Positions 11,647 to 24,860 of a DNA stretch of 51,645 nt are shown here, in pieces. The position numbers and the translations under genes are program-made. The DNA lies in IMG/VR virus record IMGVR_UViG_3300009151_000097, positions 1 through 51,645 of that record, one strand, 5' to 3'. The notes beneath the pieces were generated by a model. It ran no database searches and was not told where the DNA came from. It saw only the letters and a program-made list of their open reading frames with translations. The DNA comes from a virus. Position 1 is the stretch's first letter. Each line of letters starts with the position of its first letter.

Positions 11647-13218
11647 ATGCCACGTTTATCATTATACAAACCAGAAAAAGGTAGTGACTACAAATTCTTA
11701 GATCGCAATATATCTGAGCTATTTCAAGTAGGCGGTACTGACTTGCACTTTCACAAATATCTTGGGCCAAAAAATCCGCTTACTGGAGAATCTAGTGCTG
11801 TTATTCCGCAATATAATGCATTAAGTCCGACTAATATACAAGATCTATTACTACTTGAAAATAGAGATAGAGTATACGATACATCAATATATACTTTACG
11901 TTGCATTTATAATGTTGCAGATATTGATTTTAATTTAAGCCAGTTTGGATTGTTTATTGATAACGATACACTGTTTATGACTGTACATATCAACGATACA
12001 GTTAGCACCGTAGGCAGAAAACCCATTGCAGGTGATGTTATAGAATTGCCGCACCTAAAAGATGAGTTTGCACTGAGTTCTGCAGATGTTGCAATGCCTA
12101 GATTTTTTGCTATTGAAGAAGTGGGCAGAGCTGCAGAAGGATTTAGTCGTACTTGGTATCCACACCTATATCGATTAAAACTTAAGAAATTAACTAACTC
12201 CCAGCAATTTACAGATATTTTAAATGTACCAACTGATGATACTGCTAATTTTGTTGGAGATTATGATCCAACAAAAACATATACATCTGGTGAAATTGTT
12301 CGATATCAGGGATCGCTGTATAGTGTCACTGCATCAACTACAGGTAATGCACCACCTGATACTAATTTCTTTAGCATATATGGTGGAACTACTATTCAAG
12401 GCATACTTAGTACTAGTGCTAAAAATCTTGAAATTAACGATGCCATCATTGCCCAAGCTGAAATTGATGCTAAATCTAGTGGCTATGAAACTCAGCAATT
12501 TTATACACTGGCCGTTGACGATAAAGGCAATCCTATACTTAAAACTGTAGACGATACACACATTGATGCCAGCAATACTCAAGAAGATGCTAGCGAAACT
12601 GCCGGCAAACCTAAACGTTCCGGGTATAGTGGTTATTTATTAGGCGATGGTATTCCTCCTAATGGTGCAGATTTTGGGCATGGCATTTCATTTCCCACAA
12701 ATGCTATTAAAAGTGATTATTACTTACGCATTGATATGTTGCCAAATAGACTATTTAGATATGACGGCAAGCGATGGGTTAAAGTTGAAGATGCAGTTCG
12801 TCACACATTAACTAATACTAATAACAGACAAACATTTAGAACTGGGTTTATTAACAATAATAATTGGACTTATAATCAGCAATTAACTAGTGATAATATT
12901 ACTATATCACAATCAATGATTGACAATGATGTTAGGGTCCTTAATACTGCTATTGATTATGCAACATACAACACAGCGTTGTTTGTTGTTATAAATCAAT
13001 CAGTCATCAAATTAGATTTTGCAGTAGAAGAACATCCAAATTTAATTAGTTCATATACAACAACTATAGACGGTGAACCTACTCAATTAATTAGAATAAC
13101 ATTGCCTGCAGACTATCATATAACCGTTGCTGGACAATGGACTGTGACATTATATAATGTTAGAGAAGCAGAAAAACAAAGCCTGAGCAAGGCACTTAGA
13201 CCTAAGGCAGATTTCTAA
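11647..13218 (+). CDS. 14: Neck protein gp14 with inserted CBM-like module
   Basis: 523 aa from the ATG at 11647; upstream codons back to 11599 would run through the promoter and are rejected. Second neck protein of T4-like phages (T4 gp14: 256 aa). The opening PRLSLYKPEKGSDYKFLDRN, the block NIQDLLLLENRDRVYD, the segment FNLSQFGLFIDNDTLFMTVH and SRTWYPHLYRLKLKKL are typical of marine gp14. Residues about 201-246 (FVGDYDPTKTYTSGEIVRYQ, then GSLYSVTASTTGNAPPDTNF) form one CBM5/12-like module of the type repeated in the giant fibres. This insertion and a longer C-terminal beta part explain the extra length. Its stop overlaps the gp15 ATG (TAATG). Confidence 0.9.
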   Translation: MPRLSLYKPEKGSDYKFLDRNISELFQVGGTDLHFHKYLGPKNPLTGESSAVIPQYNALSPTNIQDLLLLENRDRVYDTSIYTLRCIYNVADIDFNLSQFGLFIDNDTLFMTVHINDTVSTVGRKPIAGDVIELPHLKDEFALSSADVAMPRFFAIEEVGRAAEGFSRTWYPHLYRLKLKKLTNSQQFTDILNVPTDDTANFVGDYDPTKTYTSGEIVRYQGSLYSVTASTTGNAPPDTNFFSIYGGTTIQGILSTSAKNLEINDAIIAQAEIDAKSSGYETQQFYTLAVDDKGNPILKTVDDTHIDASNTQEDASETAGKPKRSGYSGYLLGDGIPPNGADFGHGISFPTNAIKSDYYLRIDMLPNRLFRYDGKRWVKVEDAVRHTLTNTNNRQTFRTGFINNNNWTYNQQLTSDNITISQSMIDNDVRVLNTAIDYATYNTALFVVINQSVIKLDFAVEEHPNLISSYTTTIDGEPTQLIRITLPADYHITVAGQWTVTLYNVREAEKQSLSKALRPKADF

Positions 13219-15098
13219 TGCAACATTTTTATGATGGACAATTAAGACGATATCTTATTCAAGTTATTAGACTACTAAGTAATTTTGTAGTCAAGTATGG
13301 TGACGGCACACTGGTTAGAATACCAGTTATGTACGGTGATCAAGACAAACAAGTTGCTAGTATTATTAATCAAAATAGCGAAAATATGCTAGCTGGTGCT
13401 CCTAAGATTGCAGTTTATATTTCTGATCTTGATCTTGCAAGAGATAGAATAGGTGATTCTACATTTGTTAGTAAGTTAAATTTTAGAGAACGTGCAATAG
13501 ATGAAGAGACTGGCACATATAATAACAGTCAAGGAAATCAATACACTGTTGAAAGATTAATGCCAACGCCATACGACTTGTCATTAAAAGTTGATATCTG
13601 GACAGCAAACACTGATCAAAAATTGCAAATTCTTGAACAAATTTTAACTTTGTTCAATCCTAGTTTAGAAATACAAACTACTGATAATTATATAGATTGG
13701 ACTAGTTTAAGTGTTGTTGAATTAGGAGACGTAGTGTTTAGCTCTAGATCAATACCTGTAGGGACGCAATCTGCAATAGATATTGCATCAATATCACTTA
13801 AAACACCGGTATGGCTTAGCCCGCCTGCTAAAATTAAACAATTAGGTATTATAACAAATATCATTGCTAATATCTACGAAAATAAAAGTGACCCAGTGTT
13901 AGACTATATAGATGGGTTAGGTGTTGACTATGCCGTGGGGCAAGTTGATCCTGTTGGAAAAATATTTGATAATAAAACTTCAATTGGAAACTTTGATATT
14001 CTAGTAGCAGAAAATACAGTTAAATTCCGTAGCAACGAAAGCGGTACCGGAAGCTGGTTAAATTGGGAAATGGTCATTAAACAATATCCGGGAAAAATAA
14101 CTTCTGGATTAAGTAAAATATTTTTAAGGCAACCTGACGGTACAGATGTTGTTGGTAAGATTAGTATTAATCCGTTAGATAATTTACAATTATTTGCAGA
14201 ATGGGATCCAGATACCTTTCCGTCTAATACACGCATAGCAGGTCCAGCAAATTCTAGGCCTGAATCAGATTGGGTCTATTATGATGCAATTATTGATCCG
14301 ACTACATTTAATCCTAAGAGACCAAATAAAGAAAGAACAGACCAACCTATAACATTAGGTAGAAGATATTTAATTGTTGAAGGAATTGGCGGAGCTGTTA
14401 GAGATACGTTTACTTCTAACGCAAAAACAAATTATATACATACTAACATTTTACATAAAAAAGTTAACAATCATAAATTATATGTTAACGGAATTGAAGT
14501 AATATCAGATCCTCAATCAAATCCAGTGTTCCATAATACTATTAGCACTACAATTTTTGGTAGTGGTGCCGGAGCAACCTTTGATGTGACTCAGGTATTA
14601 GCTACCTCTTCTTATTCTGCTATACGAAGTAATCCTGGTTCTAACTATCAAATTGGAGATAAAATTCGAGTCAGAGGAAAAAAACTAGGTGGAGTAAACA
14701 TTATTAATGATTGCCTAATCACAGTGACTGGGGTAAACGGATCCGGAGGCATAACTACTACTAACTCAGCAGGAATATCAGTTGACAAGGAATTTGTTAT
14801 AGTTCCTGCTACTCAAATATCTGCAAATAGTACGATTACTTATGAATTAAATCTTAATGAAGATGGACCCGATGCATGGAAAAACTTAGACGGTAGTGAT
14901 GCATTAGCCGAAGCTAATGACATTATTGAGTGGGATGGTACAAAATGGGTAGTAGTATTTTCTGCAGATGAGGTCACAGATCAACTAGTATATCAGATGA
15001 ATTTTTATACTAGGACTCAATACAAGTGGAATGGGGTAGAATGGGTTAAATCTTTTGAAGGCGAATATAAGAAAGGCGAATGGAGAATAAATCTTTAA
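13218..15098 (+). CDS. 15: Tail completion / sheath stabiliser gp15, with long C-terminal extension
   Basis: 626 aa; T4 gp15 has 272. Caps the tail and joins it to the neck. The N-terminal core (about 1-235) is typical: HFYDGQLRRYLIQVIRLLSN, the VRIPVMYGDQDKQVASI strand, the segment MPTPYDLSLKVDIWTANTDQ with QKLQILEQILTLFNPSLEIQ, and LKTPVWLSPPAKIKQLGIIT. The extension (about 240-626) holds beta modules. One at about residues 448-522 (GSGAGATFDVT to GVNIINDCLITVTGV) is also found in both giant fibres. Near the end are two WDGTKWV / WNGVEWV motifs of the kind seen in fibre proteins. It is coupled to gp14 by TAATG and to the Nudix gene by a 19-base overlap. Confidence 0.88.
   Translation: MQHFYDGQLRRYLIQVIRLLSNFVVKYGDGTLVRIPVMYGDQDKQVASIINQNSENMLAGAPKIAVYISDLDLARDRIGDSTFVSKLNFRERAIDEETGTYNNSQGNQYTVERLMPTPYDLSLKVDIWTANTDQKLQILEQILTLFNPSLEIQTTDNYIDWTSLSVVELGDVVFSSRSIPVGTQSAIDIASISLKTPVWLSPPAKIKQLGIITNIIANIYENKSDPVLDYIDGLGVDYAVGQVDPVGKIFDNKTSIGNFDILVAENTVKFRSNESGTGSWLNWEMVIKQYPGKITSGLSKIFLRQPDGTDVVGKISINPLDNLQLFAEWDPDTFPSNTRIAGPANSRPESDWVYYDAIIDPTTFNPKRPNKERTDQPITLGRRYLIVEGIGGAVRDTFTSNAKTNYIHTNILHKKVNNHKLYVNGIEVISDPQSNPVFHNTISTTIFGSGAGATFDVTQVLATSSYSAIRSNPGSNYQIGDKIRVRGKKLGGVNIINDCLITVTGVNGSGGITTTNSAGISVDKEFVIVPATQISANSTITYELNLNEDGPDAWKNLDGSDALAEANDIIEWDGTKWVVVFSADEVTDQLVYQMNFYTRTQYKWNGVEWVKSFEGEYKKGEWRINL
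14559..14785 (+). repeat. LGG-type beta module inside gp15, shared with the giant fibres
   Basis: Encodes GSGAGATFDVT...GSNYQIGDKIRVRGKKLGG...ITVTGV. The same pattern (G-x-G-x-x-F-D-V/I, then a GD-K-I/L or Q-I-R-I strand, L-G-G, and I-x-V-T) is coded near 37534-37745 and 43680-43880 on the minus strand, in the 3587-aa and 2725-aa fibres. Confidence 0.7.
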
Positions 15099-15526
15099 CA
15101 GAAATTGACTGTTCAGGTGCATTAATATGCGCTAGGGACACTCACAGAGTTTTACTACTACAAAAGAAAGAAGGAAAACATGCCGGTCGCTGGGGACTAG
15201 TTGGAGGTACAAATTTGTCGCACGAATCTGCATGGCAAGGATTGTGCAGAGAAATAAATGAAGAATTAGGAGTTGATCCTAATATTAAAAAAACACTACC
15301 CTTGGAACGATTTGTTAGCAATGACAGTATGTTTAAATTTCATACTTATTTTTGTATTGTTGACGAAGAGTTTGTTCCTAAATTGAGCAACGAGCACGTT
15401 GCCTGGGGTTGGTTTGCTCTTGATAGTTTGCCTAAACCTGTGCATAAGGGTTTAGATCTAAGTTTAAGAAATCGTATTATTGAAAATAAGATCCAAACAA
15501 TTCTTGATATAGTAGATCTACTTTAA
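15080..15526 (+). CDS. Nudix hydrolase
   Basis: 148 aa. The Nudix box is complete at residues 43-65: Gly43, then Glu49, then REINEELGV (Arg57, Glu58, Glu61, Glu62, Gly64), fitting G-x5-E-x7-REUxEExGU. Such enzymes split nucleoside diphosphates linked to another group (NTPs, sugar nucleotides, capped RNA, cofactors); the substrate cannot be told here. The sequence before the box (KEGKHAGRWGLVGG) and a single compact domain fit the usual small Nudix length. The ATG lies inside the end of gp15 with an AAAGG just before it, so it is probably translated with the neck genes. Its stop overlaps that of halogenase 1 on the other strand by four bases. Nudix genes occur in T4 (nudE) and in many marine phages. 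Confidence 0.93.
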   Translation: MENKSLTEIDCSGALICARDTHRVLLLQKKEGKHAGRWGLVGGTNLSHESAWQGLCREINEELGVDPNIKKTLPLERFVSNDSMFKFHTYFCIVDEEFVPKLSNEHVAWGWFALDSLPKPVHKGLDLSLRNRIIENKIQTILDIVDLL

Positions 15527-17070
15527 CCCACGTGCCACTCAACTCCACGACGCGGAATAAACTTAACATTGTTATTGTTTACTATGCTTCTGTACTCATT
15601 AAAATTATAATGAGTTAATCTTAATTTTTCCGTAGCCATAGTTAATTTATTTAATTCGTTAACTGCTTCTTGTACAACATCTTTAGTTAAATGTTTGTAT
15701 GCTACTTCAGGACTTATTTGTCCTGTTCCTACTAATATAAAACTCCATATTGCCCACGGGGCTGCTCCATGATACGCAGAGAAGTCATACTTACTAGGCA
15801 GACGACTTTTGCAAGTTTCTCTTAAATCTCGAGTAAAATCTGTTAACGTATTACCAGCAGTTATATAACGCCAAAATTCGCTGTCTGTCCTGCCACCTAA
15901 ATAATGCGCAACTAAAAAATCTTTAAAGTCATCAAACATTGTATTAACACGTTTGTTATAAAACAAAATAGATGCAGGATTTAGTGTATCTTCTTTTGTT
16001 GGTTTTAAAAATTCAAAACATAAATGGCTTATCTGCACAATTGTAGAATGAATAGATGTAGCTTCTAGTGGTTCTGCAAAGGCTCCGGCTAATCCAATAG
16101 CTAGACAATTTTTTACCCAAGTATTTTCTAACCGACCAGTCTCAAATTTAAAATAATTAATAGGTGTTATTTTTCTACCTAGCGTTGTTTCAATTTCTGC
16201 TTGTGCTTGATCTGCTGTGATAAAATCATCGCAGAACGTATATCCACAACCTTTTCGATTTTGTATATTAGCTTCCCAGTACCAGCCTGATGATTGTGCC
16301 CATGCAGTACTATAACACTTGGGTTCTTCTCCTTCATCGTAGTCTAAGAAAAATGGCAATGCAGCATTAACAGGTAAATGTTTCTTATAATCAATCCATT
16401 TAGTTTCAAGTTTTTTCATTAAGATACGTTTGAATCCAGATGCATCTATAAAGAAATCACCAACAACGGTTGTTTGATTTTCTAATAATAACGATTTAAC
16501 AAATCCTTGTTCATCTAGATTTACATCTACAATCTTTGCATCAATTAGTGAACAATTAGCAGATTTTAGACAATGTTTTTCAAGATACTGTGCTACTAGT
16601 TTAGCATCAAAATGAAATGCGTGTGTACTAACTTCAATGTTATTTGTAATTCTACTTATAGGTGAAATATTATTATCGTACATTTGGCCAAAGAACGCTC
16701 CCATATGTACTTTATTAGGATGCTGAGAAGCAAGATATGCTATCATTGAATCCGTCGTCTGTAGTGCAGTTAAAGTTCCGTCAATTGGACCAAAATAGTC
16801 ATGGCCTTTTTTACTAGTCCAATCTTTATGAAGTATGCCGTATTTAGGCATAGCCGAAGTCTCTCTACAAAATTCAGCAGGATCAATTCCAAAATCTCCA
16901 TAGTGGCCTGCAATAACATCTGTTAGAGCTCCAGTCACTGCTTCGCCAGCTCCAATGACTCCTATATCTTTTGATGCCACTATAGTCACATTATGATGTG
17001 GGTGTGATTTGCTAATAAACAAGGCAGCAAGCCAGCCTGCTGTTCCGCCGCCTACAACTACAATATTCAT
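15523..17070 (-). CDS. Flavin-dependent halogenase 1 (tryptophan-halogenase family)
   Basis: 515 aa. The family (Pfam Trp_halogenase) uses reduced flavin, O2 and halide to make hypohalous acid, which reaches the substrate through a catalytic Lys. Seen: the N-terminal FAD motif VVGGGTAGWLAAL (7-12), GVIGAGEA (Glu43), the Lys motif PKYGILHKDW (Lys76, PrnA Lys79 position) and the FAEPLEATS loop (Glu333, Glu336), close to the FxxPxxSxG halogenase pattern with Ala for Ser and Ser for Gly. The WxWxIP motif is altered to WYWEAN, keeping both Trp but losing Ile-Pro. A separate flavin reductase would be needed and none is in the window. An AGGA lies eight bases before the ATG. The gene stands alone, divergent from the 191-aa oxygenase. 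The halide and substrate are unknown. Confidence 0.9.
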   Translation of the reverse strand: MNIVVVGGGTAGWLAALFISKSHPHHNVTIVASKDIGVIGAGEAVTGALTDVIAGHYGDFGIDPAEFCRETSAMPKYGILHKDWTSKKGHDYFGPIDGTLTALQTTDSMIAYLASQHPNKVHMGAFFGQMYDNNISPISRITNNIEVSTHAFHFDAKLVAQYLEKHCLKSANCSLIDAKIVDVNLDEQGFVKSLLLENQTTVVGDFFIDASGFKRILMKKLETKWIDYKKHLPVNAALPFFLDYDEGEEPKCYSTAWAQSSGWYWEANIQNRKGCGYTFCDDFITADQAQAEIETTLGRKITPINYFKFETGRLENTWVKNCLAIGLAGAFAEPLEATSIHSTIVQISHLCFEFLKPTKEDTLNPASILFYNKRVNTMFDDFKDFLVAHYLGGRTDSEFWRYITAGNTLTDFTRDLRETCKSRLPSKYDFSAYHGAAPWAIWSFILVGTGQISPEVAYKHLTKDVVQEAVNELNKLTMATEKLRLTHYNFNEYRSIVNNNNVKFIPRRGVEWHVG

Positions 17071-17125
17071 ATTAAATCCTTTGATGCATTATATATCTAT
17101 TTTATCAGCAAGGAATTTTAATACT

Positions 17126-17133
17126 GGTAAATA
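17126..17133 (+). promoter_or_regulatory. Weak late-type promoter octamer GGTAAATA
   Basis: Plus-strand GGTAAATA, two mismatches from TATAAATA, ending seven bases before the oxygenase ATG at 17141. It is the only late-type match before the rightward oxygenase-halogenase-carbamoyltransferase unit. Confidence 0.35.
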
Positions 17134-17140
17134 TCTCACT

Positions 17141-17716
17141 ATGGATATAACTTATATTTTTAAATCGTTCCTTACAACCGAAAAGTTATCGTGTATTGAT
17201 AACGACGAGTTAAAAAAGTATGCGTACTACCTACAAACATCGTCTGATGGTGTTGTAAAAAGTAATGTTAGAGGGTGGCAAAGTGATGAGTTATCTAAGC
17301 CAAATTTAGAAATTGGCAAATTAGTTGATATGATAATTGAAAATTTAAAACTTGTGCATACTGAATTTGGACTTAAAGACGAATATAAAATGCAACTTGG
17401 TAATTTATGGATAAACATTAATAATAAATCAAGTTTCAATCGTCCGCACGTTCATCCTGACTCAACAGTGTCAGGTGTATATTATGTGTCAGTTCCTAAA
17501 GATTCGGGCAATATAGTGTTTAATCACCCTGCAGTTGCACAATCGTATCATATTAATGAGTCTACTTTAAAAAATACAAACTCTATAAATGCGTCTACAT
17601 GGCACCTTACTCCTGAGGCCGGGTTATTAATTCTGTTTCCATCTTGGTTATCACACTATGTTGAGCCAAGTAATAGTGATGACGATCGGATTTCAATAGC
17701 GTTTAATGCTCGGTAA
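17141..17716 (+). CDS. 2OG-Fe(II) oxygenase A (TIGR02466/2OG-FeII_Oxy_5 type)
   Basis: 191 aa from the ATG at 17141; an upstream extension to 17009 is antisense to the halogenase 1 start and is rejected. The pattern NRPHVHPDSTVSGVYYVSVP, then GNIVFNHP, then LLILFPSWLSHYVEP and DRISIAFNA is that of a putative 2-oxoglutarate/Fe(II) oxygenase family common in marine phages. Likely iron ligands are His103/His105 (HxH in place of HxD) and His172, with Arg183 for 2-oxoglutarate. It heads a rightward set: oxygenase A, halogenase 2 (12 bases on), carbamoyltransferase. It resembles oxygenase C at 21503-22126, which follows halogenase 3. It may hydroxylate the product of the neighbouring halogenase or a protein side chain; the substrate is unknown. 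Confidence 0.85.
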   Translation: MDITYIFKSFLTTEKLSCIDNDELKKYAYYLQTSSDGVVKSNVRGWQSDELSKPNLEIGKLVDMIIENLKLVHTEFGLKDEYKMQLGNLWININNKSSFNRPHVHPDSTVSGVYYVSVPKDSGNIVFNHPAVAQSYHINESTLKNTNSINASTWHLTPEAGLLILFPSWLSHYVEPSNSDDDRISIAFNAR

Positions 17717-17728
17717 TAAAATAAAAAT

Positions 17729-19219
17729 ATGAAAAAAAATAAAATTGTAATATTAGGTGGCGGTACTGCCGGATGGATGACTGCGTTAGTATTAAAACAA
17801 ATATTTCCAAAGAGAGATATAACATTAATACAAAGCAAGAATATTGGTATTATAGGAGTAGGAGAGGCTACTACTCCGCACATAGTACATTTCTTAAAGT
17901 CTATAGATATTGACCCGTTTGATGTTATTAAGAAATCAAGCGGTAGTTTTAAAGCTGGTATCAGTTTTGAAAATTGGAATGGCGATGGCAAAAATTATTT
18001 TCACGGGTTTGACGACAAATTAATAGATTCGGATATTCCTGGGGTGTTTAATGGCGGTGCTAACGATATTTTAAAAAAATTATTAATTGATGAAAATTCA
18101 AAATTTGAAGATTTCATATATCAAACAAAATTATCTTACAATAATAAGGTTGATTTGAATAAAACTGCATGGGCAATGCATTTTGATGCTCATAAATTTG
18201 CAGATTATTTAGAAAATACTGGAAGATCAAGAGGCATCAATGTTATTGAAGAAGAATTTGTAGATGCAAAATTTGCAGATAACGGAAATATTAATGAAGT
18301 AGTTCTTACAAACGACATTAGTGTTGCATGTGATTTTATATTTGATTGTTCTGGATTTTCTAGATTACTTATTGACAAAGTATATAATAGTGAATGGATT
18401 TCATTTGCCAAACATCTTCCAATGAAGAAAGCAATACCGTTTTGGTTAGATAGTGAAGACAATATTAAACCTTATACTAAAGCTATTGCTATGAAATACG
18501 GGTGGATGTGGCAAATTCCGTTAGATCACAGGATTGGATCAGGTTATATTTTTGATAGTGATTATATAACAGAAGACGAAGCACTGGCAGAAGCAGAAGA
18601 GTTCTATCAACAAAAACTAACTGTTAATAAAGTTATCTCATTTGAGCCTGGTAGATTTAAAGATGTATGGATTAAAAATTGTTGTGCCATTGGATTAAGT
18701 GCGAATTTTATAGAACCTCTTGAGTCAACTTCGTTATGGCTTACTGTGACACAATTAGAAATGCTTAGACATTTTCTTGATACTATTGAACTTTTAGATA
18801 GTGACGATATTGCTTTGTATAATGAGATTGTAGGGAAAGAGGTTGATGAAAAATTAAATTTTGTATATTTTCATTATTTAACAAAACGTCAAGATAGTAA
18901 ATTTTGGCAAGAATTTAAAACAAAAACTCAGCCACCTGTTGAATTTATTCCTCTATTAAACTGTATTAAGAAAAATAATATGAGACAATTTATGTTTAGG
19001 GGATCTCTGGAAACTGGGCGTTTTCCAATGTCGAGTTATTTACAAGTTGGATACGGATTAGGAATTTTTGAAAAGAAACCAAATATAACTAATTATGAAA
19101 ATATACAACCAGATATTGATGCCCACGGCAGTTATGTTGACGCCCATGTCCGAGATGCGCCGAGTCATCGAGAGGTGTTAACTATATTAAAAACTATTGA
19201 TTTTTCAAAGAGAGGATAA
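17729..19219 (+). CDS. Flavin-dependent halogenase 2 (tryptophan-halogenase family)
   Basis: 496 aa, the most canonical of the three halogenases. FAD motif ILGGGTAGWMTAL (Gly10-Gly15), GIIGVGEATTP (Glu46), catalytic-Lys motif SFKAGISFENW (Lys75), an intact WMWQIP as the WxWxIP motif, and NFIEPLESTS (Phe327, Pro330, Glu332, Ser333). The last matches the FxxPxxSxG loop except Ser for Gly. Seeing all of these argues for a true halogenase rather than a flavin monooxygenase. The gene starts 12 bases after oxygenase A in a very A-rich leader without a clear Shine-Dalgarno site and ends three bases before the carbamoyltransferase. It is more like halogenase 3 (IDPF/IDPY and K-x-GIxF-x-NW regions) than halogenase 1. 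Substrate unknown; the viral iodinase VirX1 is the nearest characterised case I know. Confidence 0.92.
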   Translation: MKKNKIVILGGGTAGWMTALVLKQIFPKRDITLIQSKNIGIIGVGEATTPHIVHFLKSIDIDPFDVIKKSSGSFKAGISFENWNGDGKNYFHGFDDKLIDSDIPGVFNGGANDILKKLLIDENSKFEDFIYQTKLSYNNKVDLNKTAWAMHFDAHKFADYLENTGRSRGINVIEEEFVDAKFADNGNINEVVLTNDISVACDFIFDCSGFSRLLIDKVYNSEWISFAKHLPMKKAIPFWLDSEDNIKPYTKAIAMKYGWMWQIPLDHRIGSGYIFDSDYITEDEALAEAEEFYQQKLTVNKVISFEPGRFKDVWIKNCCAIGLSANFIEPLESTSLWLTVTQLEMLRHFLDTIELLDSDDIALYNEIVGKEVDEKLNFVYFHYLTKRQDSKFWQEFKTKTQPPVEFIPLLNCIKKNNMRQFMFRGSLETGRFPMSSYLQVGYGLGIFEKKPNITNYENIQPDIDAHGSYVDAHVRDAPSHREVLTILKTIDFSKRG

Positions 19220-19222
19220 CAA

Positions 19223-20938
19223 ATGAATATTTTGGGTATTCAAAAAGATCATAATTCGTCAGCATGTTTATTTAACGGTAGAGAATTAGTTTATTATAAT
19301 CAAGAAGAACGCCTATCTAGATTTAAAAAAGATGGCGGGGTTCCTATTTTTTGTTTAAAAGAAATTAAAGAAATTGCATCTGAAATAGATGTATTATTAA
19401 TTTCAGGATATAATGTTTCTCATTCAGATAGAATGTCTATCCAATCTTTACTTAGAAAATTGGGGTTTACGTTTAGTAAAAAATATACATACGAAGAATA
19501 TCATAACCACCACCATCTATGCCATGCTGCTACTGCATTTTATAATTCCGGATTTAAAGAAGCCTTGATTATTGTTAGTGATGGAAAGGGGAGTAATTAT
19601 GTTTTAGATAATGGACGACAGGCAAACGAAACAACATCTATTTTTAAAATGACAGTCCCAGATAATGCATACTTAATGTATAAAAGATTTTACACTAAAT
19701 GTCAACATCCGTCTACACTAACACCAATTTGGACAGAAAATTTTGGAATACTCCAGCCGCATAAACCACCAAAATGGCTAATGGCAGATTCAGAAATAGA
19801 TATTAGAAATGACTTTGATAGAGGATTTATGTACGAGGCCGTTAGTAGGGCTGTTGGGTTTAATGACGAAGGTGGAAAAATGATGGGCCTGCAGTCGTAT
19901 GGTCGTGAAGTTGATCCAAGAATTTTACCTACTCTATTTAAAGAAGATTATAAATTTCAAATGTTAGAAGTGTTTACGATTGATGCATTTGGCCGACGAT
20001 ATGATCTAAATACTATGAAGTATCCTCATTTAGATAGTCAAGAACATATGATTAATTTTACGTATAAAGTTCAAAAAGCGTTTGAAGAGTCAGGACTTGC
20101 ATTAATTAACAAATGGTTAGAGAAATCAACATCTAAAAATTTAATACTAACTGGTGGTACTGCATTAAACGTTGTTGCAAATTCTTATTTTAAAAAACAC
20201 TTACCGGCAGATGTAAATTTATATGCTGACCCATTATGTGGTGATGAAGGAAATATCATAGGGTTATGTCAATACTATATAAGAGGAAAGACTGTGTTTA
20301 GAGATGTTAAAACATTCCCTAATATTTTCTTGTGTGGTAATGACCCTATATACGATTTTGAATTGCAAGAAAACGAAGTAGTTAAGGATAATGTATCATA
20401 TTCAGATATTATAGATTTAATCTGTAATCAGAATATAGTTGCACTTTTCCAAGGAAAAGCCGAAGCTGGGCCTAGGGCATTAGGCAATAGAACTATCTTA
20501 TTTGATCCAAGGAACACCAATGGTAAGGATATTGTTAACAAGGTTAAAGGGCGAGAACATTTTAGACCATTTGCAGGATCTGTGATGGTTGAACATGCAA
20601 ATGAATGGTTTGATATGTTAGGGCTGGACGAGTCTCCTTACATGATGTATGCATTAGAGGCAAGAGACGGCGTTGCTGACAAAATTCCTTCAGTTATCCA
20701 TGTCGATAATACCTGTCGAGTTCAAACAGTATCAGAAGAACAAAACTTCCATTACTATAATTTAATAAAAGAATTTTATAATAGAACTGAAATTCCGTTA
20801 TTATTCAATACGTCATTTAACCTTGCTGGGGATCCCATTGTTCATACTATATACGATGCAATTGAATCTTTAAGAAAATCTAAAATTGAATATTTGTACT
20901 TACCAGACATTGGTAAATTAATCTACATTAAAAACTAA
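19223..20938 (+). CDS. NodU/TobZ-type O-carbamoyltransferase
   Basis: 571 aa, full length for the family. Such enzymes make carbamoyl-AMP from carbamoyl phosphate and ATP in a Kae1-like domain and pass the carbamoyl group to a hydroxyl, often of a sugar. Seen: NILGIQKDHNSSACLFN at the start, the metal-binding HHLCHAATAFYNSGF (His97, His101), IIVSDGKGSN (Asp120), ILTGGTALN, then the C-terminal domain with GKAEAGPRALGNRTIL (Gly416-Arg423), REHFRPFAGSV and PLLFNTSFN. An AGAGGA ribosome site precedes the ATG, three bases after halogenase 2, so the two are co-transcribed. Carbamoyltransferases are known in T4-like cyanophages. A hydroxyl made by one of the nearby oxygenases would be a logical acceptor, but this is inference. 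Confidence 0.93.
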   Translation: MNILGIQKDHNSSACLFNGRELVYYNQEERLSRFKKDGGVPIFCLKEIKEIASEIDVLLISGYNVSHSDRMSIQSLLRKLGFTFSKKYTYEEYHNHHHLCHAATAFYNSGFKEALIIVSDGKGSNYVLDNGRQANETTSIFKMTVPDNAYLMYKRFYTKCQHPSTLTPIWTENFGILQPHKPPKWLMADSEIDIRNDFDRGFMYEAVSRAVGFNDEGGKMMGLQSYGREVDPRILPTLFKEDYKFQMLEVFTIDAFGRRYDLNTMKYPHLDSQEHMINFTYKVQKAFEESGLALINKWLEKSTSKNLILTGGTALNVVANSYFKKHLPADVNLYADPLCGDEGNIIGLCQYYIRGKTVFRDVKTFPNIFLCGNDPIYDFELQENEVVKDNVSYSDIIDLICNQNIVALFQGKAEAGPRALGNRTILFDPRNTNGKDIVNKVKGREHFRPFAGSVMVEHANEWFDMLGLDESPYMMYALEARDGVADKIPSVIHVDNTCRVQTVSEEQNFHYYNLIKEFYNRTEIPLLFNTSFNLAGDPIVHTIYDAIESLRKSKIEYLYLPDIGKLIYIKN

Positions 20939-20939
20939 T

Positions 20940-21506
20940 TTACCAAACCCAAGATACAAAGCTGTATCGAGTTCCTGAAGTCACAGTGCTAACGGCGTGT
21001 GGGTACATGAAGTTGCTAGGGAATATCATTATTGAACCACCCGGAAGATTGATTTTTTGATCTTCCCACATGATAAATTCGCCGCCTTCATAATCATCAT
21101 TTAATGATGCTACTACTGAAAGGATAGGAACCCCCTTTTCCTTGCCGTCAAATAATGAATGGATATGATCGCAGTGCGGTTTCATATTGGTGCCGCCAGT
21201 GTACTTATTAAATCGTATCTTAGAAAAATTGTGCCATGTGTTAAACCAAGCAAATCCTTTAAGATCTGTTTTTACGTATTGATTAAGTGCATTCCAAGTT
21301 GCTTTATGTAAATCATCATACTCGGGAATAGGCTCGTATGACATATGTAAATCATCGTCATACGTTAAACTTGTTCCGGCAGACGTATAGTAATAATGCT
21401 TTTGCCATTCTGCTTTTTCTAAAGATGATATAACTGATTTACAAAAATCTTGAGAGAAATAATTATTATAAATTTTTACATAGTCTTGAATCTTTTCTGG
21501 TATCAT
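20940..21506 (-). CDS. 2OG-Fe(II) oxygenase B (prolyl-4-hydroxylase-like)
   Basis: 188 aa. The double-stranded beta-helix signature is clear: MKPHCDHIHSLF (His111, Asp113), ILSVVASLNDDYEGGEF, LPGGSIMIFPSNFMYPHAV (His170) and GTRYSFVSWVW (Arg180 for 2-oxoglutarate). This HxD...H...R set and the YEGGEF strand are those of prolyl-4-hydroxylase-like enzymes. It is the last gene of a leftward set (halogenase 3, oxygenase C, oxygenase B). Its ATG overlaps the stop of oxygenase C and has AGGAGA nine bases upstream. Its stop lies one base from that of the carbamoyltransferase coming the other way. It might act on proline or lysine of a protein or on a small molecule; unknown. Confidence 0.9.
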   Translation of the reverse strand: MIPEKIQDYVKIYNNYFSQDFCKSVISSLEKAEWQKHYYYTSAGTSLTYDDDLHMSYEPIPEYDDLHKATWNALNQYVKTDLKGFAWFNTWHNFSKIRFNKYTGGTNMKPHCDHIHSLFDGKEKGVPILSVVASLNDDYEGGEFIMWEDQKINLPGGSIMIFPSNFMYPHAVSTVTSGTRYSFVSWVW

Positions 21507-22126
21507 AATATAACTTCTCCTAAATTATAACCATCGCCGAGTCTTCCTTTTAAAAATGTATTAAAGGATAAACTTATCCGTTTGGTCCTATCTACGTGCT
21601 CTGTTATTTGATCTACATTATGAACTAGTTGGGATGGAAACAACACTATATCTCCCGTTTCTACTGCATAACTCCATGTTTGACAATTAAATTCGTGGTC
21701 TATGGTTGGGCGAATATGTAGCTGAGGCATAGTGCGCTGATTATGAAATTGTAATGCATCAATTTTGTTTGAAGCAGATATGTATAATACTCCGCTAATA
21801 AAACTGTTTGGATGATTATGAGAATGATGATTTTGCCCCGGCAACGTTAAATTAACCCAAGATTGTGTTATATAGATGTTTAGTTCTTTAGTAGGTTTAT
21901 AGATTTCTTGAAAATAAAAATTTATTTTTTCTTCTATAAACAATCGAATCTCTAATAGTTCAGGGCTGTTAAGGACATATGTATTTGTGCTAACGCTATT
22001 ATTATAATTTTCTCTCATTTCTAAGTTATTAATAAACTCGAGTTCGGTGTTGGTAAATCCTTTCTCCAAATGCCCAAACATAACTGGCGTAGGGAACAAC
22101 TTGTCAAATATTGTAGGTTTTTCCAT
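21503..22126 (-). CDS. 2OG-Fe(II) oxygenase C (TIGR02466/2OG-FeII_Oxy_5 type)
   Basis: 207 aa. The opening FDKLFPTPVMFGHL is typical of this family. The core shows LPGQNHHSHNHPNSFISGVL, DALQFHNQ, TGDIVLFPSQLVHNVDQI and TKRISLSFNTF. Likely ligands are His103/His105, His169 and Arg183; the HxH form and spacing match oxygenase A at 17141. It overlaps the halogenase 3 stop by one base (TAATG), with AAGGA about ten bases before the ATG, and overlaps oxygenase B by four bases. A halogenase therefore sits directly beside an oxygenase of this type in both cassettes of the island, though the order of the two is reversed. Confidence 0.87.
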   Translation of the reverse strand: MEKPTIFDKLFPTPVMFGHLEKGFTNTELEFINNLEMRENYNNSVSTNTYVLNSPELLEIRLFIEEKINFYFQEIYKPTKELNIYITQSWVNLTLPGQNHHSHNHPNSFISGVLYISASNKIDALQFHNQRTMPQLHIRPTIDHEFNCQTWSYAVETGDIVLFPSQLVHNVDQITEHVDRTKRISLSFNTFLKGRLGDGYNLGEVIL

Positions 22127-23583
22127 TATAAATAGTTCCTTATGATTGATATCATTTCTTTATGTGTTATAAATTTTATATTTTTTTCAGCAGCTAGTTG
22201 TTGATTAATAATAGTATTTGCAGTTTCTTTTATTTCTGGATATAATATATTGTATTCTGTCCTAATAGAATTTCTATCAAACAACTCTAATCCTTCCATG
22301 ATTACAATAAAATTGGCTGGGGTAAACAATATATAATCAGACATATTATTAAAATCTTCTGATACCGGCAACCGATGCCGCCATCTTTTTAATTTAGATG
22401 TTAGACTATCAGGCAATTCAAGTGCATTAACATCTCTCCAAAATTCTGTATTAGTTTTATTAGTAATGTAATGAAGAATTATAAAGTCTCGAATATTTTC
22501 CATTATACTATTAACTGATTTATTGTAATCTTCTATAGAATTGTCGTTATAATTAATTAACTTTTGCATTAATAAAAACGACTGTTGTATACTTGTTCCT
22601 ATACTGCTTGCTTCTAGCGGCTCGATAAAACTTGCGCTTAATCCGATGGCACAGCAGTTTTTGATCCACGGTTGTTCTAATGCACCTGGATCAAAATTAA
22701 ACTGTTTACCTATTTCTATTTCATGGCCTAATAATCTTTCAACTTCTAATTTGGCCTGCTCGGCAGTAATATAGTCGCTATCAAAAATATAACCATTACC
22801 GTTTCTTCCTTGTACAGGAATTTTAAACATCCATCCGTAATCCATTGCTTGTGCCAATGTCCAATAATTATAGTTTTCTTCTTCGGCTGTTTGGAATGTT
22901 ATAGCAGACTTCATCTTTAAATACTTACTATAAGACTGCCATTTTGCTCCTAACTTATTCATTAATATACGTTTAAATCCAGTACTATCTATATAAAAAT
23001 CGTATTCGTATATCCTGCTATTACTGGTTAAATTTTTTATTGCGCCAGACGTATCTAAGATAACGTCACTAATATCATCTTCAATTATACCTATCCCCAT
23101 AGATGTTGCTATTTTTGTTAAAAATTCATTTAGCTTATGAGTATTAAAATGATACTGATTAACTGGAGGAGACTCAGGTCTACTAACATGCCAGCTGTTA
23201 ATCATACTTTCCCAATTGCTTTTAGGATTAACGTATGTTGAGTTTTCTGCTATTTGCTTTGCATATACAAACAAGTACTGAGAAAACTTTGAGTCAAACG
23301 GAGAAACTACTGAATGAAGGTAATCTCGAACTCCCCAATTTTTAAACATTATTCCAGATTTATAAGTTGCATCACATTCCTTAATCAGAGTATACGGGTC
23401 AATGCCTACAAATTGCATAAATTCTCGCCAGTGTTCAGTACTACCTTCTCCGACGCCTACTATCCCAATATTTTTTGAATACACTAAATCAACTTGGATA
23501 TTCAGTTTTTTCTTCAAAATAAGTGCTGATATTAGTCCCGCAGTGCCTCCACCGACTATTAACACTTTTTTTACATTATTCAT
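22126..23583 (-). CDS. Flavin-dependent halogenase 3 (tryptophan-halogenase family)
   Basis: 485 aa from the ATG at 23583, chosen because AGGA sits five bases upstream; ATGs at 23601 and 23589 would add six or two residues. FAD motif LIVGGGTAGLISAL (11-16), with Leu where the family usually has Trp, GIVGVGEGST (Glu46), the catalytic-Lys motif TYKSGIMFKNW (Lys75) and the halide-loop region SFIEPLEASS. The WxWxIP motif reads WMFKIP, so the second Trp is Phe. It leads a leftward coupled set with oxygenases C and B. A TGTAAATA octamer lies 20 bases upstream. The altered motif may change substrate or activity. No flavin reductase gene is nearby. Confidence 0.9.
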   Translation of the reverse strand: MNNVKKVLIVGGGTAGLISALILKKKLNIQVDLVYSKNIGIVGVGEGSTEHWREFMQFVGIDPYTLIKECDATYKSGIMFKNWGVRDYLHSVVSPFDSKFSQYLFVYAKQIAENSTYVNPKSNWESMINSWHVSRPESPPVNQYHFNTHKLNEFLTKIATSMGIGIIEDDISDVILDTSGAIKNLTSNSRIYEYDFYIDSTGFKRILMNKLGAKWQSYSKYLKMKSAITFQTAEEENYNYWTLAQAMDYGWMFKIPVQGRNGNGYIFDSDYITAEQAKLEVERLLGHEIEIGKQFNFDPGALEQPWIKNCCAIGLSASFIEPLEASSIGTSIQQSFLLMQKLINYNDNSIEDYNKSVNSIMENIRDFIILHYITNKTNTEFWRDVNALELPDSLTSKLKRWRHRLPVSEDFNNMSDYILFTPANFIVIMEGLELFDRNSIRTEYNILYPEIKETANTIINQQLAAEKNIKFITHKEMISIIRNYL

Positions 23584-23603
23584 ATTCATCCTATATAGCA
23601 TGT

Positions 23604-23611
23604 TATTTACA
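23604..23611 (-). promoter_or_regulatory. Late-type promoter octamer before halogenase 3
   Basis: Minus-strand TGTAAATA, the same octamer as before gp17, with 20 bases and an AGGA site before the ATG at 23583. Confidence 0.5.
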
Positions 23612-23653
23612 CGTTAGTATACTAGTAAAAAAAATTTCAATAGATAATTTGGT

Positions 23654-23661
23654 TATAAATA
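23654..23661 (+). promoter_or_regulatory. Perfect T4-type late promoter before oxygenase D
   Basis: Plus-strand TATAAATA, ending five bases before the ATG at 23667. Identical to the T4 late consensus; the transcript would be nearly leaderless. Confidence 0.7.
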
Positions 23662-23666
23662 GTTCC

Positions 23667-24167
23667 ATGGCAATAACTATTATTGATAATTTCTTAGATG
23701 ATAAATCTTTTAAAACACTTCAAGATCATATGATGGGTCCTTGGTTTCCTTGGGTATATAATGATGCACTATTAACCAACGTTAGTGATACTAGTTTATA
23801 TGATTTTCAATTTGTTCATACATTTTATAAAGATCATAAACCCCATAGTGATTTACTGCATATTTTAGATCCAATTTTAGCAAAAATTTCGCCTGCGGCA
23901 GTATTAAGGATCAAAGCAAATCTTAATCCCAGAACTGATAATTTATATCTTCATAGAGCACATACAGATGTTGAAAATTATAAGTGTACCACTGCATTAT
24001 TATACATGAATACTAATGACGGTTATACCGTATTTGAGGACGGTACTAAAGTTGAATCTGTTGCAAATAGATTTGTGTCATTTAATTCAACTATGATGCA
24101 TGCCGGTACTAGTTGTACTAATCAAAAAATTAGAGTTGTTATTAATTTTAATTATCACTCTTGGTAA
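23667..24167 (+). CDS. 2OG-Fe(II) oxygenase D (small)
   Basis: 166 aa from the ATG at 23667; the in-frame extension to 23523 runs antisense through the halogenase 3 start and the promoter and is rejected. Seen: LYLHRAHTDVENYKCTTALL (His99, Asp101), YTVFEDGTKVESVANRFVSF, MMHAGTS (His145) and IRVVINFNY (Arg156). These give the HxD...H...R set of 2-oxoglutarate oxygenases in a short form with little outside the core. It belongs to neither the HxH type (A, C) nor the EGGEF type (B, E). It is a single-gene unit with its own perfect late promoter, divergent from halogenase 3 and ending next to oxygenase E on the other strand. Substrate unknown. Confidence 0.85.
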   Translation: MAITIIDNFLDDKSFKTLQDHMMGPWFPWVYNDALLTNVSDTSLYDFQFVHTFYKDHKPHSDLLHILDPILAKISPAAVLRIKANLNPRTDNLYLHRAHTDVENYKCTTALLYMNTNDGYTVFEDGTKVESVANRFVSFNSTMMHAGTSCTNQKIRVVINFNYHSW

Positions 24168-24821
24168 TTATCTAAACTTAGGGCCCTGTACCCAAATAAC
24201 AATTGATTTTCTAGTTCCCTTTGTAACTGGGGCTACCCTATGAATTAAGAAGGAAGGAAATGCTATTAACATTCCTTTTTTTAAATCTACAGTATCAACT
24301 TCTGTAGGAGATCCTTTATTAATTTCAAAATTACCTCCTTCAAAGTCCACACCCGGCTCGTTTAATAATAATGTTATTGACAATTTTCTAGTTTCTGTAA
24401 ACCCATTAGGATGTCCTCCTAAATATGAATCCATATGCCAATCATATTTGCCCAATTCGTGTCCGTAGTATTCTGTATATTGAAAAAACGAATATCCGTT
24501 AAGATCAAAATTATAAAATCTAAAATTAAGTCGATCAATAATTTGGTTTAATCTATCAAAAATCCAATGTGTTTTTTCATTAACTCCGTAAAAATTTACA
24601 TGCGAAGTACGTGAGTTTTTATCTAAGGCTCCAATTTTGGCATCTCCATCGGGGGATTTAGCTGATATTTCTGCGTCAACAGTTTGAGTTTCTGACATTA
24701 GTTTAATAATAGCATCTAGCTCTTCATCGTTAAAAACATTATTCCAAAAACAGTAAGGTAATATATCTCGCTGTCTAATAGTAATATCTTCATTAATAAT
24801 ACCTCGATAATTATGACTCAT
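24168..24821 (-). CDS. 2OG-Fe(II) oxygenase E (prolyl-4-hydroxylase/PKHD-like)
   Basis: 217 aa. The core shows KYDWHMDSYLGG (His129, Asp131), RKLSITLLLNEPGVDFEGGNF, LKKGMLIAFPSFLIHRVAPV (His194) and GTRKSIVIWVQGP (Arg204). This is the family of PKHD-type and prolyl-4-hydroxylase-like enzymes, similar to oxygenase B. The N-terminal 110 residues are helical and include YGVNEKTHWIFDRLNQIIDR. The ribosome site AAGGG lies inside the 3' arm of the terminator hairpin of the fibre unit just upstream, so translation may depend on how that hairpin folds. It ends directly against oxygenase D. It could be expressed by read-through from the fibre genes. Confidence 0.9.
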   Translation of the reverse strand: MSHNYRGIINEDITIRQRDILPYCFWNNVFNDEELDAIIKLMSETQTVDAEISAKSPDGDAKIGALDKNSRTSHVNFYGVNEKTHWIFDRLNQIIDRLNFRFYNFDLNGYSFFQYTEYYGHELGKYDWHMDSYLGGHPNGFTETRKLSITLLLNEPGVDFEGGNFEINKGSPTEVDTVDLKKGMLIAFPSFLIHRVAPVTKGTRKSIVIWVQGPKFR

Positions 24822-24860
24822 AAAAATGCCCTTGATAATATAATAGTTATCAAGGGCATT
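24820..24860 (-). terminator. Intrinsic terminator of the fibre unit, hiding the oxygenase E ribosome site
   Basis: Perfect 14-bp inverted repeat (24847-24860 and 24825-24838) with an 8-base loop. On the minus strand the repeat ends in CAAGGGCATT and runs into a T stretch that touches the ATG at 24821. The AAGGG is the only good ribosome site for oxygenase E and is paired in the stem. Confidence 0.85.

What the first reader, a model, noticed from the sequence alone, without database searches (positions are those of the whole stretch)
15080..24821. A nine-gene oxidation, halogenation and carbamoylation island in a phage
Seen: three full-length flavin halogenases, five 2OG-Fe(II) oxygenases and one NodU/TobZ carbamoyltransferase, with a Nudix gene at the left edge, all between tail-completion and tail-fibre genes. 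Known: single halogenases, 2OG oxygenases and carbamoyltransferases occur in marine T4-like phages, and VirX1 of cyanophage Syn10 is a proven viral halogenase. Inference: the genes form one tailoring system in which oxygenases add hydroxyls, halogenases act on aromatic groups and the carbamoyltransferase caps a hydroxyl. Possible targets are fibre or sheath proteins, a host surface glycan, or an infected-cell metabolite. I know of no described phage system with this full set.
Basis: partly seen in the sequence, partly recalled or inferred. Interest (0 to 1): 0.92.

Follow-up and report, generated by a model that had tools for sequence, protein, structure and literature searches.

The report
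Phage island for modifying tail tips
This phage carries nine intact enzyme genes (three halogenases, five oxygenases, one carbamoyltransferase) beside its receptor-binding tail-tip gene; comparison with several hundred related stretches suggests such islands chemically decorate the tip, which would give the known viral halogenase VirX1 a natural job, but no substrate has been shown.

Summary
At 15080-24821 lie a Nudix gene, three full-length flavin halogenases, five 2OG-Fe(II) oxygenases and one TobZ-type carbamoyltransferase. Catalytic motifs are mostly intact and dN/dS is 0.04-0.38. A second contig carries the island with 2 mismatches in 12.6 kb. At least 20 distinct viral loci hold two or more halogenases, a carbamoyltransferase and two or more oxygenases. 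The set is not unprecedented: Iyer et al. 2021 reported a smaller such cluster in cyanophage S-SSM6a and read it as secondary-metabolite or capsule chemistry.

New here is the link to the adhesin. In 37 dereplicated loci anchored on a neutral fibre-side gene, halogenase islands go with glycine-rich adhesins (12/17 versus 3/20, p=0.0009). Carbamoyltransferase goes with a GT9 heptosyltransferase-like gene (p=2e-8) and Cys-rich adhesins. VirX1's home phage, Syn10, has the same layout: glycine-rich ORFs, two halogenases, oxygenase array.

Best reading: the enzymes modify the receptor-binding tip (about 0.5). Against it: tips beside halogenases are not richer in Trp or Tyr, some phage halogenases sit far from such adhesins, and the phylogeny-corrected test lacks power.

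The parts
15080..15526 (+). Nudix hydrolase (148 aa), left edge of the site; overlaps the end of gp15. Present with or without the island in sister phages, so part of the site rather than of the island.
   Evidence: PF00293 E=4.4e-16; found beside gp15 in most sister loci
15523..17070 (-). Halogenase A (515 aa): GGGTAG, catalytic Lys76, EPLEAT at 333; WxWxIP motif degenerate (WYWEAN)
   Evidence: PF04820 E=2.6e-92; motifs; dN/dS 0.04 against L005; own clade with orthologues in L142, L051, L010, L052
17141..17716 (+). 2OG-Fe(II) oxygenase of the PF13759 / phrog_81 type (191 aa; ORF opens at 17009, start corrected from homologues); invariant H103, H105, H172, R183 (HxH instead of HxD)
   Evidence: PF13759 E=1.3e-27; A4 invariants; AlphaFold pLDDT 88; fold matches 3bvc, then prolyl hydroxylases
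17729..19219 (+). Halogenase B (496 aa): complete motif set, GGGTAG, Lys75, EPLEST at 329, WMWQIP
   Evidence: PF04820 E=5e-109; PDB Trp 5-halogenase E=2.7e-63, VirX1 E=2.1e-48; dN/dS 0.12
19223..20938 (+). NodU/TobZ-type O-carbamoyltransferase (571 aa) with both domains: HHLCH at 97, SDGKG at 119, GPRALGNR at 416, TSFN at 530
   Evidence: PF16861 5.8e-58, PF02543 3.7e-19; PDB 7xb6 E=1.7e-46, NovN 9s2t, TobZ 3ven; dN/dS 0.07
20940..21506 (-). 2OG-Fe(II) oxygenase, phrog_61 type (188 aa); H111-x-D113...H170...R180
   Evidence: PF13640 7.3e-14; A5 invariants; profile nearest PKHD and prolyl-4-hydroxylases
21503..22126 (-). 2OG-Fe(II) oxygenase, phrog_81 type (207 aa); overlaps both neighbours, so probably one transcript with halogenase C
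   Evidence: PF13759 7.7e-23; coordinates
22126..23601 (-). Halogenase C (491 aa): GGGTAG, Lys81, EPLEAS at 327, WMFKIP
   Evidence: PF04820 4.5e-93; orthologues in L010 and L051; dN/dS 0.15
23667..24167 (+). 2OG-Fe(II) oxygenase of phrog_274 (named 'DNA endonuclease V' in databases); H99-x-D101...H145...R156; ATAAATA late-promoter-like motif at 23655
   Evidence: PF13640 8.9e-05; phrog_274 3e-52; A3 invariants; motif
24168..24821 (-). 2OG-Fe(II) oxygenase, phrog_61 type (217 aa), island edge next to the adhesin cluster
   Evidence: PF13640 5.2e-14; A5; kept beside the adhesin companion in L010, L051/L065, L052, L238 and L297
24882..25571 (-). Small companion protein (229 aa) of the adhesin, possibly its chaperone; repeats such as PPLPYPDDGAPYIWVQEANKW
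   Evidence: No Pfam match; similar small genes follow the glycine-rich adhesin in many loci; chaperone role is inference from Pam3 gp25 (PMC9608196)
25571..26560 (-). Glycine-rich adhesin (329 aa, 29.5% Gly), proposed substrate; W185 and W297 invariant in the 8 aligned relatives
   Evidence: Composition, alignment A2, fold match to the Pam3 receptor-binding fibre 7ypx E=6.9e-4 (low-confidence model)
13218..15098 (+). gp15-like tail sheath stabiliser: left landmark of the site
   Evidence: PF16724 3.8e-23; phrog_227 and phrog_11196
26560..27909 (-). S74 tail-fibre protein: right landmark of the site
   Evidence: PF13884 1.2e-12

Best explanation
The island is a tail-tip decoration kit. During late infection the phage makes a glycine-rich receptor-binding adhesin (25571-26560). 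Enzymes from the adjacent island modify it before or during assembly: P4H/PKHD-like oxygenases hydroxylate side chains, three halogenases with different specificities halogenate exposed aromatic side chains (Trp or Tyr), and the carbamoyltransferase caps one hydroxyl. The chemistry would change or diversify what the tip binds, or protect it. Shown: gene content, conserved catalytic residues, purifying selection, adjacency to the adhesin, and association of kit type with adhesin type. Inferred: that the adhesin is the substrate, the order of reactions, and the benefit.
For: (1) In 37 dereplicated clusters anchored on a neutral fibre-side gene, 12 of 17 halogenase loci have a glycine-rich fibre protein, against 3 of 20 without halogenase (p=0.0009). 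Fibre composition differs strongly (Gly 20.8 vs 13.0%, Cys 0.4 vs 5.0%, Lys 1.5 vs 3.6%). (2) A different kit, GT9 plus carbamoyltransferase, fills the same site where adhesins are Cys-rich, and a sulfotransferase/GT kit fills it in L119: enzyme type tracks adhesin type. (3) In another phage lineage anchored on a neutral gene, 11 of 11 halogenase loci have a glycine-rich adhesin upstream of the oxygenase/halogenase run, against 8 of 14 without (p=0.02; see caveat). (4) In isolates Syn10, P-TIM40, P-RSM6, S-SZBM1, Sf-CH3 and DSL-LC01 a halogenase lies 1.6-2.7 kb from a glycine-rich ORF (quantiles 0.024-0.07 among all genes). (5) VirX1 is CPUG_00131 of Syn10 (1271 bits), and its neighbourhood has this layout. 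VirX1 has a large, accessible active site (PMC8407142). (6) The oxygenases are nearest to protein hydroxylases: PKHD type and prolyl 4-hydroxylases, including a viral collagen P4H. (7) The window adhesin best matches the Pam3 receptor-binding fibre. (8) The island lies among virion genes, and one of its oxygenases has the motif found before the sheath, tube and giant-fibre genes.
Against: Fibre proteins beside halogenases are not richer in Trp (p=0.32) or Tyr (p=0.82). The association is not shown to be phylogenetically independent: only 2-3 supported contrasts. Some halogenase loci lack a glycine-rich adhesin (L265, L244, L266, L254, L294). S-PM2 and S-SSM7 halogenases lie far from glycine-rich ORFs and S-B64 has none. 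In the second lineage the count includes loci fetched with a halogenase query and is not dereplicated; without them it is 4/4 versus 8/14, not significant. A hairpin plus T-run (24822-24858) separates the fibre operon from the island on the minus strand (sequence). No substrate or modified residue has been seen.
Confidence: 0.5

Rival explanations
1. Host-surface remodelling: the enzymes (with GT9/sugar genes in sister phages) alter LPS, capsule or another surface glycan of the infected cell, blocking competing phages.
For: Same site in sister phages holds glycosyltransferases, sulfotransferases, an APS kinase and ADP-heptose-type genes; GT9 with carbamoyltransferase p=2e-8. Literature reads glycosyltransferases in the 'host recognition cluster' of pelagimyophages this way (PMC7029224) and S-SSM6a-type clusters as possible capsule decoration (PMC7824862).
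Against: Halogenases need aromatic groups, which surface glycans rarely carry (general knowledge); oxygenases are nearest to protein hydroxylases; the window island has no GT9 gene and no other glycosyltransferase by Pfam; kit type tracks the phage's own adhesin type.
Confidence: 0.2
2. Soluble metabolite pathway: the genes make a halogenated, hydroxylated, carbamoylated small molecule (antibiotic or signal), as proposed for S-SSM6a.
For: Carbamoyltransferase is nearest to antibiotic tailoring enzymes (7xb6, NovN, TobZ, GdmN); flavin halogenases are classic tailoring enzymes; published reading for a similar cluster (PMC7824862). The S-SSM7 cluster is not near a glycine-rich ORF.
Against: No scaffold-making enzyme, carrier protein or transporter among the window and sister-island genes scanned; fixed place beside tail-tip genes in several lineages.
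Confidence: 0.13
3. No common target: a hypervariable site collects unrelated cargo genes, each with its own small role (2OG or nitrogen metabolism, DNA repair, stress).
For: A hypervariable region beside g15 is known in cyanomyoviruses (PMC2984593); the oxygenases have been proposed to act in DNA repair or 2OG metabolism (PMC3037559, PMC9146016).
Against: Three separate halogenase clades keep orthologues together in window, L010 and L051, 16 of 17 halogenase loci carry oxygenases, and kits sort by adhesin type.
Confidence: 0.13
4. DNA modification: oxygenases and carbamoyltransferase hypermodify phage DNA, as with 5-carbamoyloxymethylcytosine.
For: A phage-associated enzyme of this Pfam family carbamoylates 5-hydroxymethylcytosine (PMC8670742).
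Against: That enzyme group sits with thymidylate-synthase genes; none was found among the window genes scanned. The window enzyme keeps TobZ Gly421 and Arg423 by alignment, Trp408 is Phe (my numbering of the printed alignment, and the direction of the published difference is not stated). No TET/JBP-type oxygenase was called, and halogenases have no known DNA role.
Confidence: 0.04

Closest known systems
VirX1 neighbourhood of cyanophage Syn10 (about CPUG_00119 to CPUG_00138)
   Same: Glycine-rich ORFs, then two PF04820 halogenases, then a run of 2OG-oxygenase-type genes; VirX1 halogenates in vitro (PMC8407142)
   Different: Two halogenases instead of three, no carbamoyltransferase found in the genome, distant sequence relation (28% identity to halogenase B); no held paper links it to an adhesin
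S-SSM6a / S-SSM7 cluster described by Iyer et al. 2021 (PMC7824862)
   Same: Carbamoyltransferase, halogenase and 2OG oxygenases together in a phage; order CARB-OG-CARB-OG-HAL in S-SSM7
   Different: One halogenase, two carbamoyltransferases; not near a glycine-rich ORF in S-SSM7; interpreted as secondary metabolite or capsule decoration
Host recognition cluster of pelagimyophages and the g15-g18 hyperplastic region of cyanomyoviruses (PMC7029224, PMC2984593)
   Same: Hypervariable gene block inside the tail-gene module, beside gp15/neck and fibre genes
   Different: Described content is glycosyltransferases or host metabolic genes; read as host-surface change or metabolism, not adhesin modification
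TobZ / NovN / GdmN O-carbamoyltransferases
   Same: Both domains and catalytic motifs
   Different: No antibiotic pathway around it; usual partner in sister phages is a GT9 gene, absent here
PBCV-1 viral collagen prolyl hydroxylase and bacterial PKHD/P4H enzymes
   Same: Fold and catalytic residues; a virus-encoded prolyl hydroxylase named for collagen is a precedent in kind
   Different: About 12-19% identity in the fold alignments; substrate here unknown

Membership tests
Flavin-dependent halogenase (PF04820) | FAD-binding GxGxxG at the N-terminus | tested here: met
   GGGTAG in A, B and C
Flavin-dependent halogenase (PF04820) | Catalytic Lys and Glu | tested here: met
   Lys76/75/81 and EPLE at 333/329/327; Lys in 156 of 159 and the EP pair in 159 of 159 phage relatives
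Flavin-dependent halogenase (PF04820) | WxWxIP motif | tested here: inconclusive
   B: WMWQIP met; C: WMFKIP; A: WYWEAN
Flavin-dependent halogenase (PF04820) | Halogenating activity with reduced flavin | not testable with these tools
   Needs an assay; no flavin reductase in the island, a host enzyme is assumed
2OG-Fe(II) oxygenase | HxD/E...H iron triad and distal Arg | tested here: met
   phrog_61 and phrog_274 types: H111 D113 H170 R180; H99 D101 H145 R156
2OG-Fe(II) oxygenase | Same triad in the two PF13759-type proteins | tested here: inconclusive
   Invariant HxH rather than HxD (H103, H105, H172, R183); the fold is that of the family
NodU/TobZ O-carbamoyltransferase | N-terminal HxxxH and Asp region plus C-terminal GPRALGxR domain | tested here: met
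5-hydroxymethylcytosine carbamoyltransferase (DNA-modifying branch) | Neighbouring thymidylate synthase / dCMP hydroxymethylase | tested here: not met
   None among the window genes scanned; association from PMC8670742
S-SSM6a-type cluster (Iyer et al. 2021) | Carbamoyltransferase + halogenase + 2OG oxygenases in one phage cluster | tested here: met
   S-SSM7 comparison
Pam3 gp24-type receptor-binding fibre (window 25571-26560) | Beta-sandwich plus glycine-rich domain (about 39% Gly in Pam3) | tested here: inconclusive
   Gly up to 44% in an 80-residue stretch; best fold match 7ypx E=6.9e-4, but the model's mean pLDDT is 47.6
Virion adhesin-modifying system | Modified residues on the adhesin | not testable with these tools
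   Needs mass spectrometry of virions

The most novel reading that the evidence does not exclude
Aquatic T4-like phages carry exchangeable adhesin-modification kits beside their receptor-binding tips, and one kit hydroxylates and halogenates glycine-rich tips. To my knowledge that would be the first halogenated virion protein, and it would be the natural role of VirX1.
Probability: 0.38. Interest if true: 0.9.

Novelty: new variant of a known kind. Interest (0 to 1): 0.72.

Why it matters
Phage halogenases and the many 2OG oxygenases of marine phages have no settled function; they are usually listed as auxiliary metabolic genes, DNA repair or antibiotic tailoring. If the islands modify tail tips, host recognition in aquatic phages would depend on post-translational chemistry that sequence alone does not show. 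It would also make the native substrate of VirX1 directly testable with a cultured phage.

Tried and rejected
Megablast of the island against isolate phages found nothing. A search for the companion protein's PYPxDG..Y.W motif as a common halogenase substrate failed: it occurs in only a few closely related proteins. Trp or Tyr enrichment in adhesins beside halogenases was tested and not found. The phylogeny-corrected pair test was underpowered. A T4-type late-promoter search gave a clear signal for virion genes but for only one island gene. A bacterial source or cluster for halogenase B was sought in 84,980 genomes; apart from one 38-residue N-terminal match, only two contigs of a Verrucomicrobia MAG (TMED56) matched, which look like phage (one has the same length as viral contig L042). 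The MetaGPA residues could not decide the DNA-modification rival because the passage found does not say which residues mark the DNA branch. Sequence search of the PDB with the adhesin and phrog_274 profiles gave no relatives.


Full report
WHAT IS THERE. The window is a 51,645-base virus record with T4-type virion genes: head closure, two tail tubes, a 1157-aa sheath nearest to jumbo phages such as PA5oct and Atu_ph07, gp15, baseplate wedge and S74 fibre. Between gp15 plus Nudix and the fibre genes lies the island: halogenases A, B and C, five 2OG oxygenases and one O-carbamoyltransferase. GC is 31-35% there against about 39-46% in most of the flanks. Two ORF starts are corrected from homologues (17141 and 23667).

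REAL AND INTACT. A second contig (L004) carries the same stretch with 2 mismatches in 12,638 bases. dN/dS against relatives is 0.04-0.16 for near pairs and up to 0.38 for far ones, where synonymous sites are close to saturation. Catalytic Lys and Glu motifs are present in all three halogenases; the WxWxIP motif is complete in B, altered in C and degenerate in A. Oxygenase families keep H-x-D...H...R, or H-x-H...H...R in the PF13759 type. The PF13759 type folds with high confidence (pLDDT 88) into the 2OG fold, nearest to two uncharacterised structures and then prolyl hydroxylases.

A CONSERVED MODULE. Related islands at the same site occur in L005, L010, L051/L065, L052-L056, L238 and L297. 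A tree of 159 phage halogenases puts A, B and C in three separate clades, each with orthologues in L010 and L051. So the three are old paralogues kept together, not recent duplicates. Twenty distinct loci carry two or more halogenases, a carbamoyltransferase and two or more oxygenases; single loci reach five halogenases.

THE SITE HOLDS ALTERNATIVE KITS. In sister phages the same site holds GT1, GT9 and GT2-like genes, two sulfotransferases, an APS kinase and carbamoyltransferase (L119), or an HldE-like gene, a HAD phosphatase (GmhB-like) and an epimerase-like gene with GT9-like, carbamoyltransferase and two halogenases (L095). I then fetched 80 loci with a fibre-side gene chosen without regard to halogenases, kept 65 with enough sequence and dereplicated them to 37. 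Halogenase loci had a glycine-rich fibre protein in 12 of 17 cases, others in 3 of 20 (Fisher p=0.0009). GT9 and carbamoyltransferase go together (21/0 versus 2/14, p=2e-8), and GT9 avoids halogenases (3/18 versus 14/2, p=1e-5). Fibre proteins without halogenase are Cys-rich (5.0 versus 0.4%) and richer in Lys and acidic residues. The window combines the halogenase/oxygenase kit with a carbamoyltransferase that lacks GT9.

OTHER LINEAGES. In a second lineage anchored on another neutral gene, the order is adhesin, small companion, oxygenase/halogenase run; 11 of 11 halogenase loci have a glycine-rich adhesin against 8 of 14 others (p=0.02), but seven of those 11 were fetched earlier by a halogenase query and the set is not dereplicated; the clean count is 4/4 versus 8/14, not significant. 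In ten isolate genomes, a halogenase lies 1.6-2.7 kb from a glycine-rich ORF in Syn10, P-TIM40, P-RSM6, S-SZBM1, Sf-CH3 and DSL-LC01, 5.7 kb in S-H38, 9.1 kb in HTVC008M and 61.7 kb in S-PM2; S-B64 has no such ORF. In S-SSM7 the cluster is far from the only glycine-rich ORF. VirX1 was located: it is CPUG_00131 of Syn10 (1271 bits to 6qgm), directly after a second halogenase and glycine-rich ORFs and before an array of oxygenase-type genes.

WHAT THE NEIGHBOUR IS. The glycine-rich protein at 25571-26560 gave a low-confidence model (pLDDT 47.6), confident mainly over residues 61-150, whose best solved match is the receptor-binding fibre of phage Pam3 (7ypx, E=6.9e-4). In Pam3 the glycine-rich tip is thought to recognise the host and a companion protein is its chaperone (PMC9608196).

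MECHANISM. The best-supported reading is modification of the phage's own tail tip, because enzyme kit and adhesin type change together at one site, the oxygenases resemble protein hydroxylases, VirX1 has an open active site, and no scaffold-building enzymes were found. The weak points are plain: Trp and Tyr are not enriched in the adhesins concerned, the phylogeny-corrected test has only 2-3 supported contrasts, there are exceptions in both directions, and a hairpin with T-run separates the fibre operon from the island (24822-24858, read from sequence).

PRIOR KNOWLEDGE. Iyer et al. 2021 described a halogenase, carbamoyltransferase and 2OG-oxygenase cluster in S-SSM6a and read it as a secondary metabolite or capsule system (PMC7824862). 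Hypervariable tail-region blocks are known in cyano- and pelagimyophages (PMC2984593, PMC7029224). Phage 2OG oxygenases have been proposed for nitrogen metabolism or DNA repair (PMC3037559, PMC9146016). I found no held paper that ties these enzymes to the adhesin; most subscription papers, including the VirX1 paper itself, could not be read.

VERDICT. Observation confirmed; the class of gene set is known, the size of the island and the adhesin link are, as far as I could check, new. I file it as a new variant of a known kind, with a testable and potentially important function.

Noticed in passing
window 23667-24167; PHROG phrog_274 members: Proteins labelled 'DNA endonuclease V' (denV) in PHROGs and in cyanophage records are 2OG-oxygenase-like (invariant HxD...H...R); the label looks wrong.
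   Followed up: partly
window-wide, e.g. 2305, 5334, 8843, 11631, 11635, 23655, 39070: The longer late-promoter-like patterns are rarer than chance overall, yet 7 of 12 copies of ATAAATA sit 12-39 bases upstream of gene starts (random mean 0.18): a T4-type late promoter used by virion genes and one island oxygenase.
   Followed up: yes
L253, L254 and GT9+CARB loci: Adhesins with about 5% or more cysteine (CHQCANAGGCVCQACGRCCL...) beside heptosyltransferase-like and carbamoyltransferase genes; unusual for a phage fibre.
   Followed up: partly
L052:12749-17086 (also L054, L056): A 1446-1758 aa subtilase (Peptidase_S8) with Reeler/Calx-beta-like parts lies between halogenase A and Nudix in some orthologous islands.
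   Followed up: no
L071:2197-3867 and L057-L060, L068-L070, L074, L093: A Cpn60-type chaperonin gene (556 aa, PF00118 E=4.5e-72) beside the largest halogenase islands.
   Followed up: no
L122-L133: Carbamoyltransferase genes broken into two to five open frames in a distinct phage group (frameshifts or inserts).
   Followed up: no
L119:5701-13741: Same site filled by GT1, GT9, GT2-like, two sulfotransferases and an APS kinase: a possible sulfated-glycan kit for the tail tip.
   Followed up: partly
window 28278-39041 and 39097-47274: Two giant ORFs (3587 and 2725 aa); the first has four CBM_5_12 matches, the second was not scanned against Pfam.
   Followed up: no
window 24822-24858: A 12-bp perfect hairpin with an 8-base loop and a T5 run ends the fibre operon exactly before the ATG of the last oxygenase on the minus strand.
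   Followed up: no
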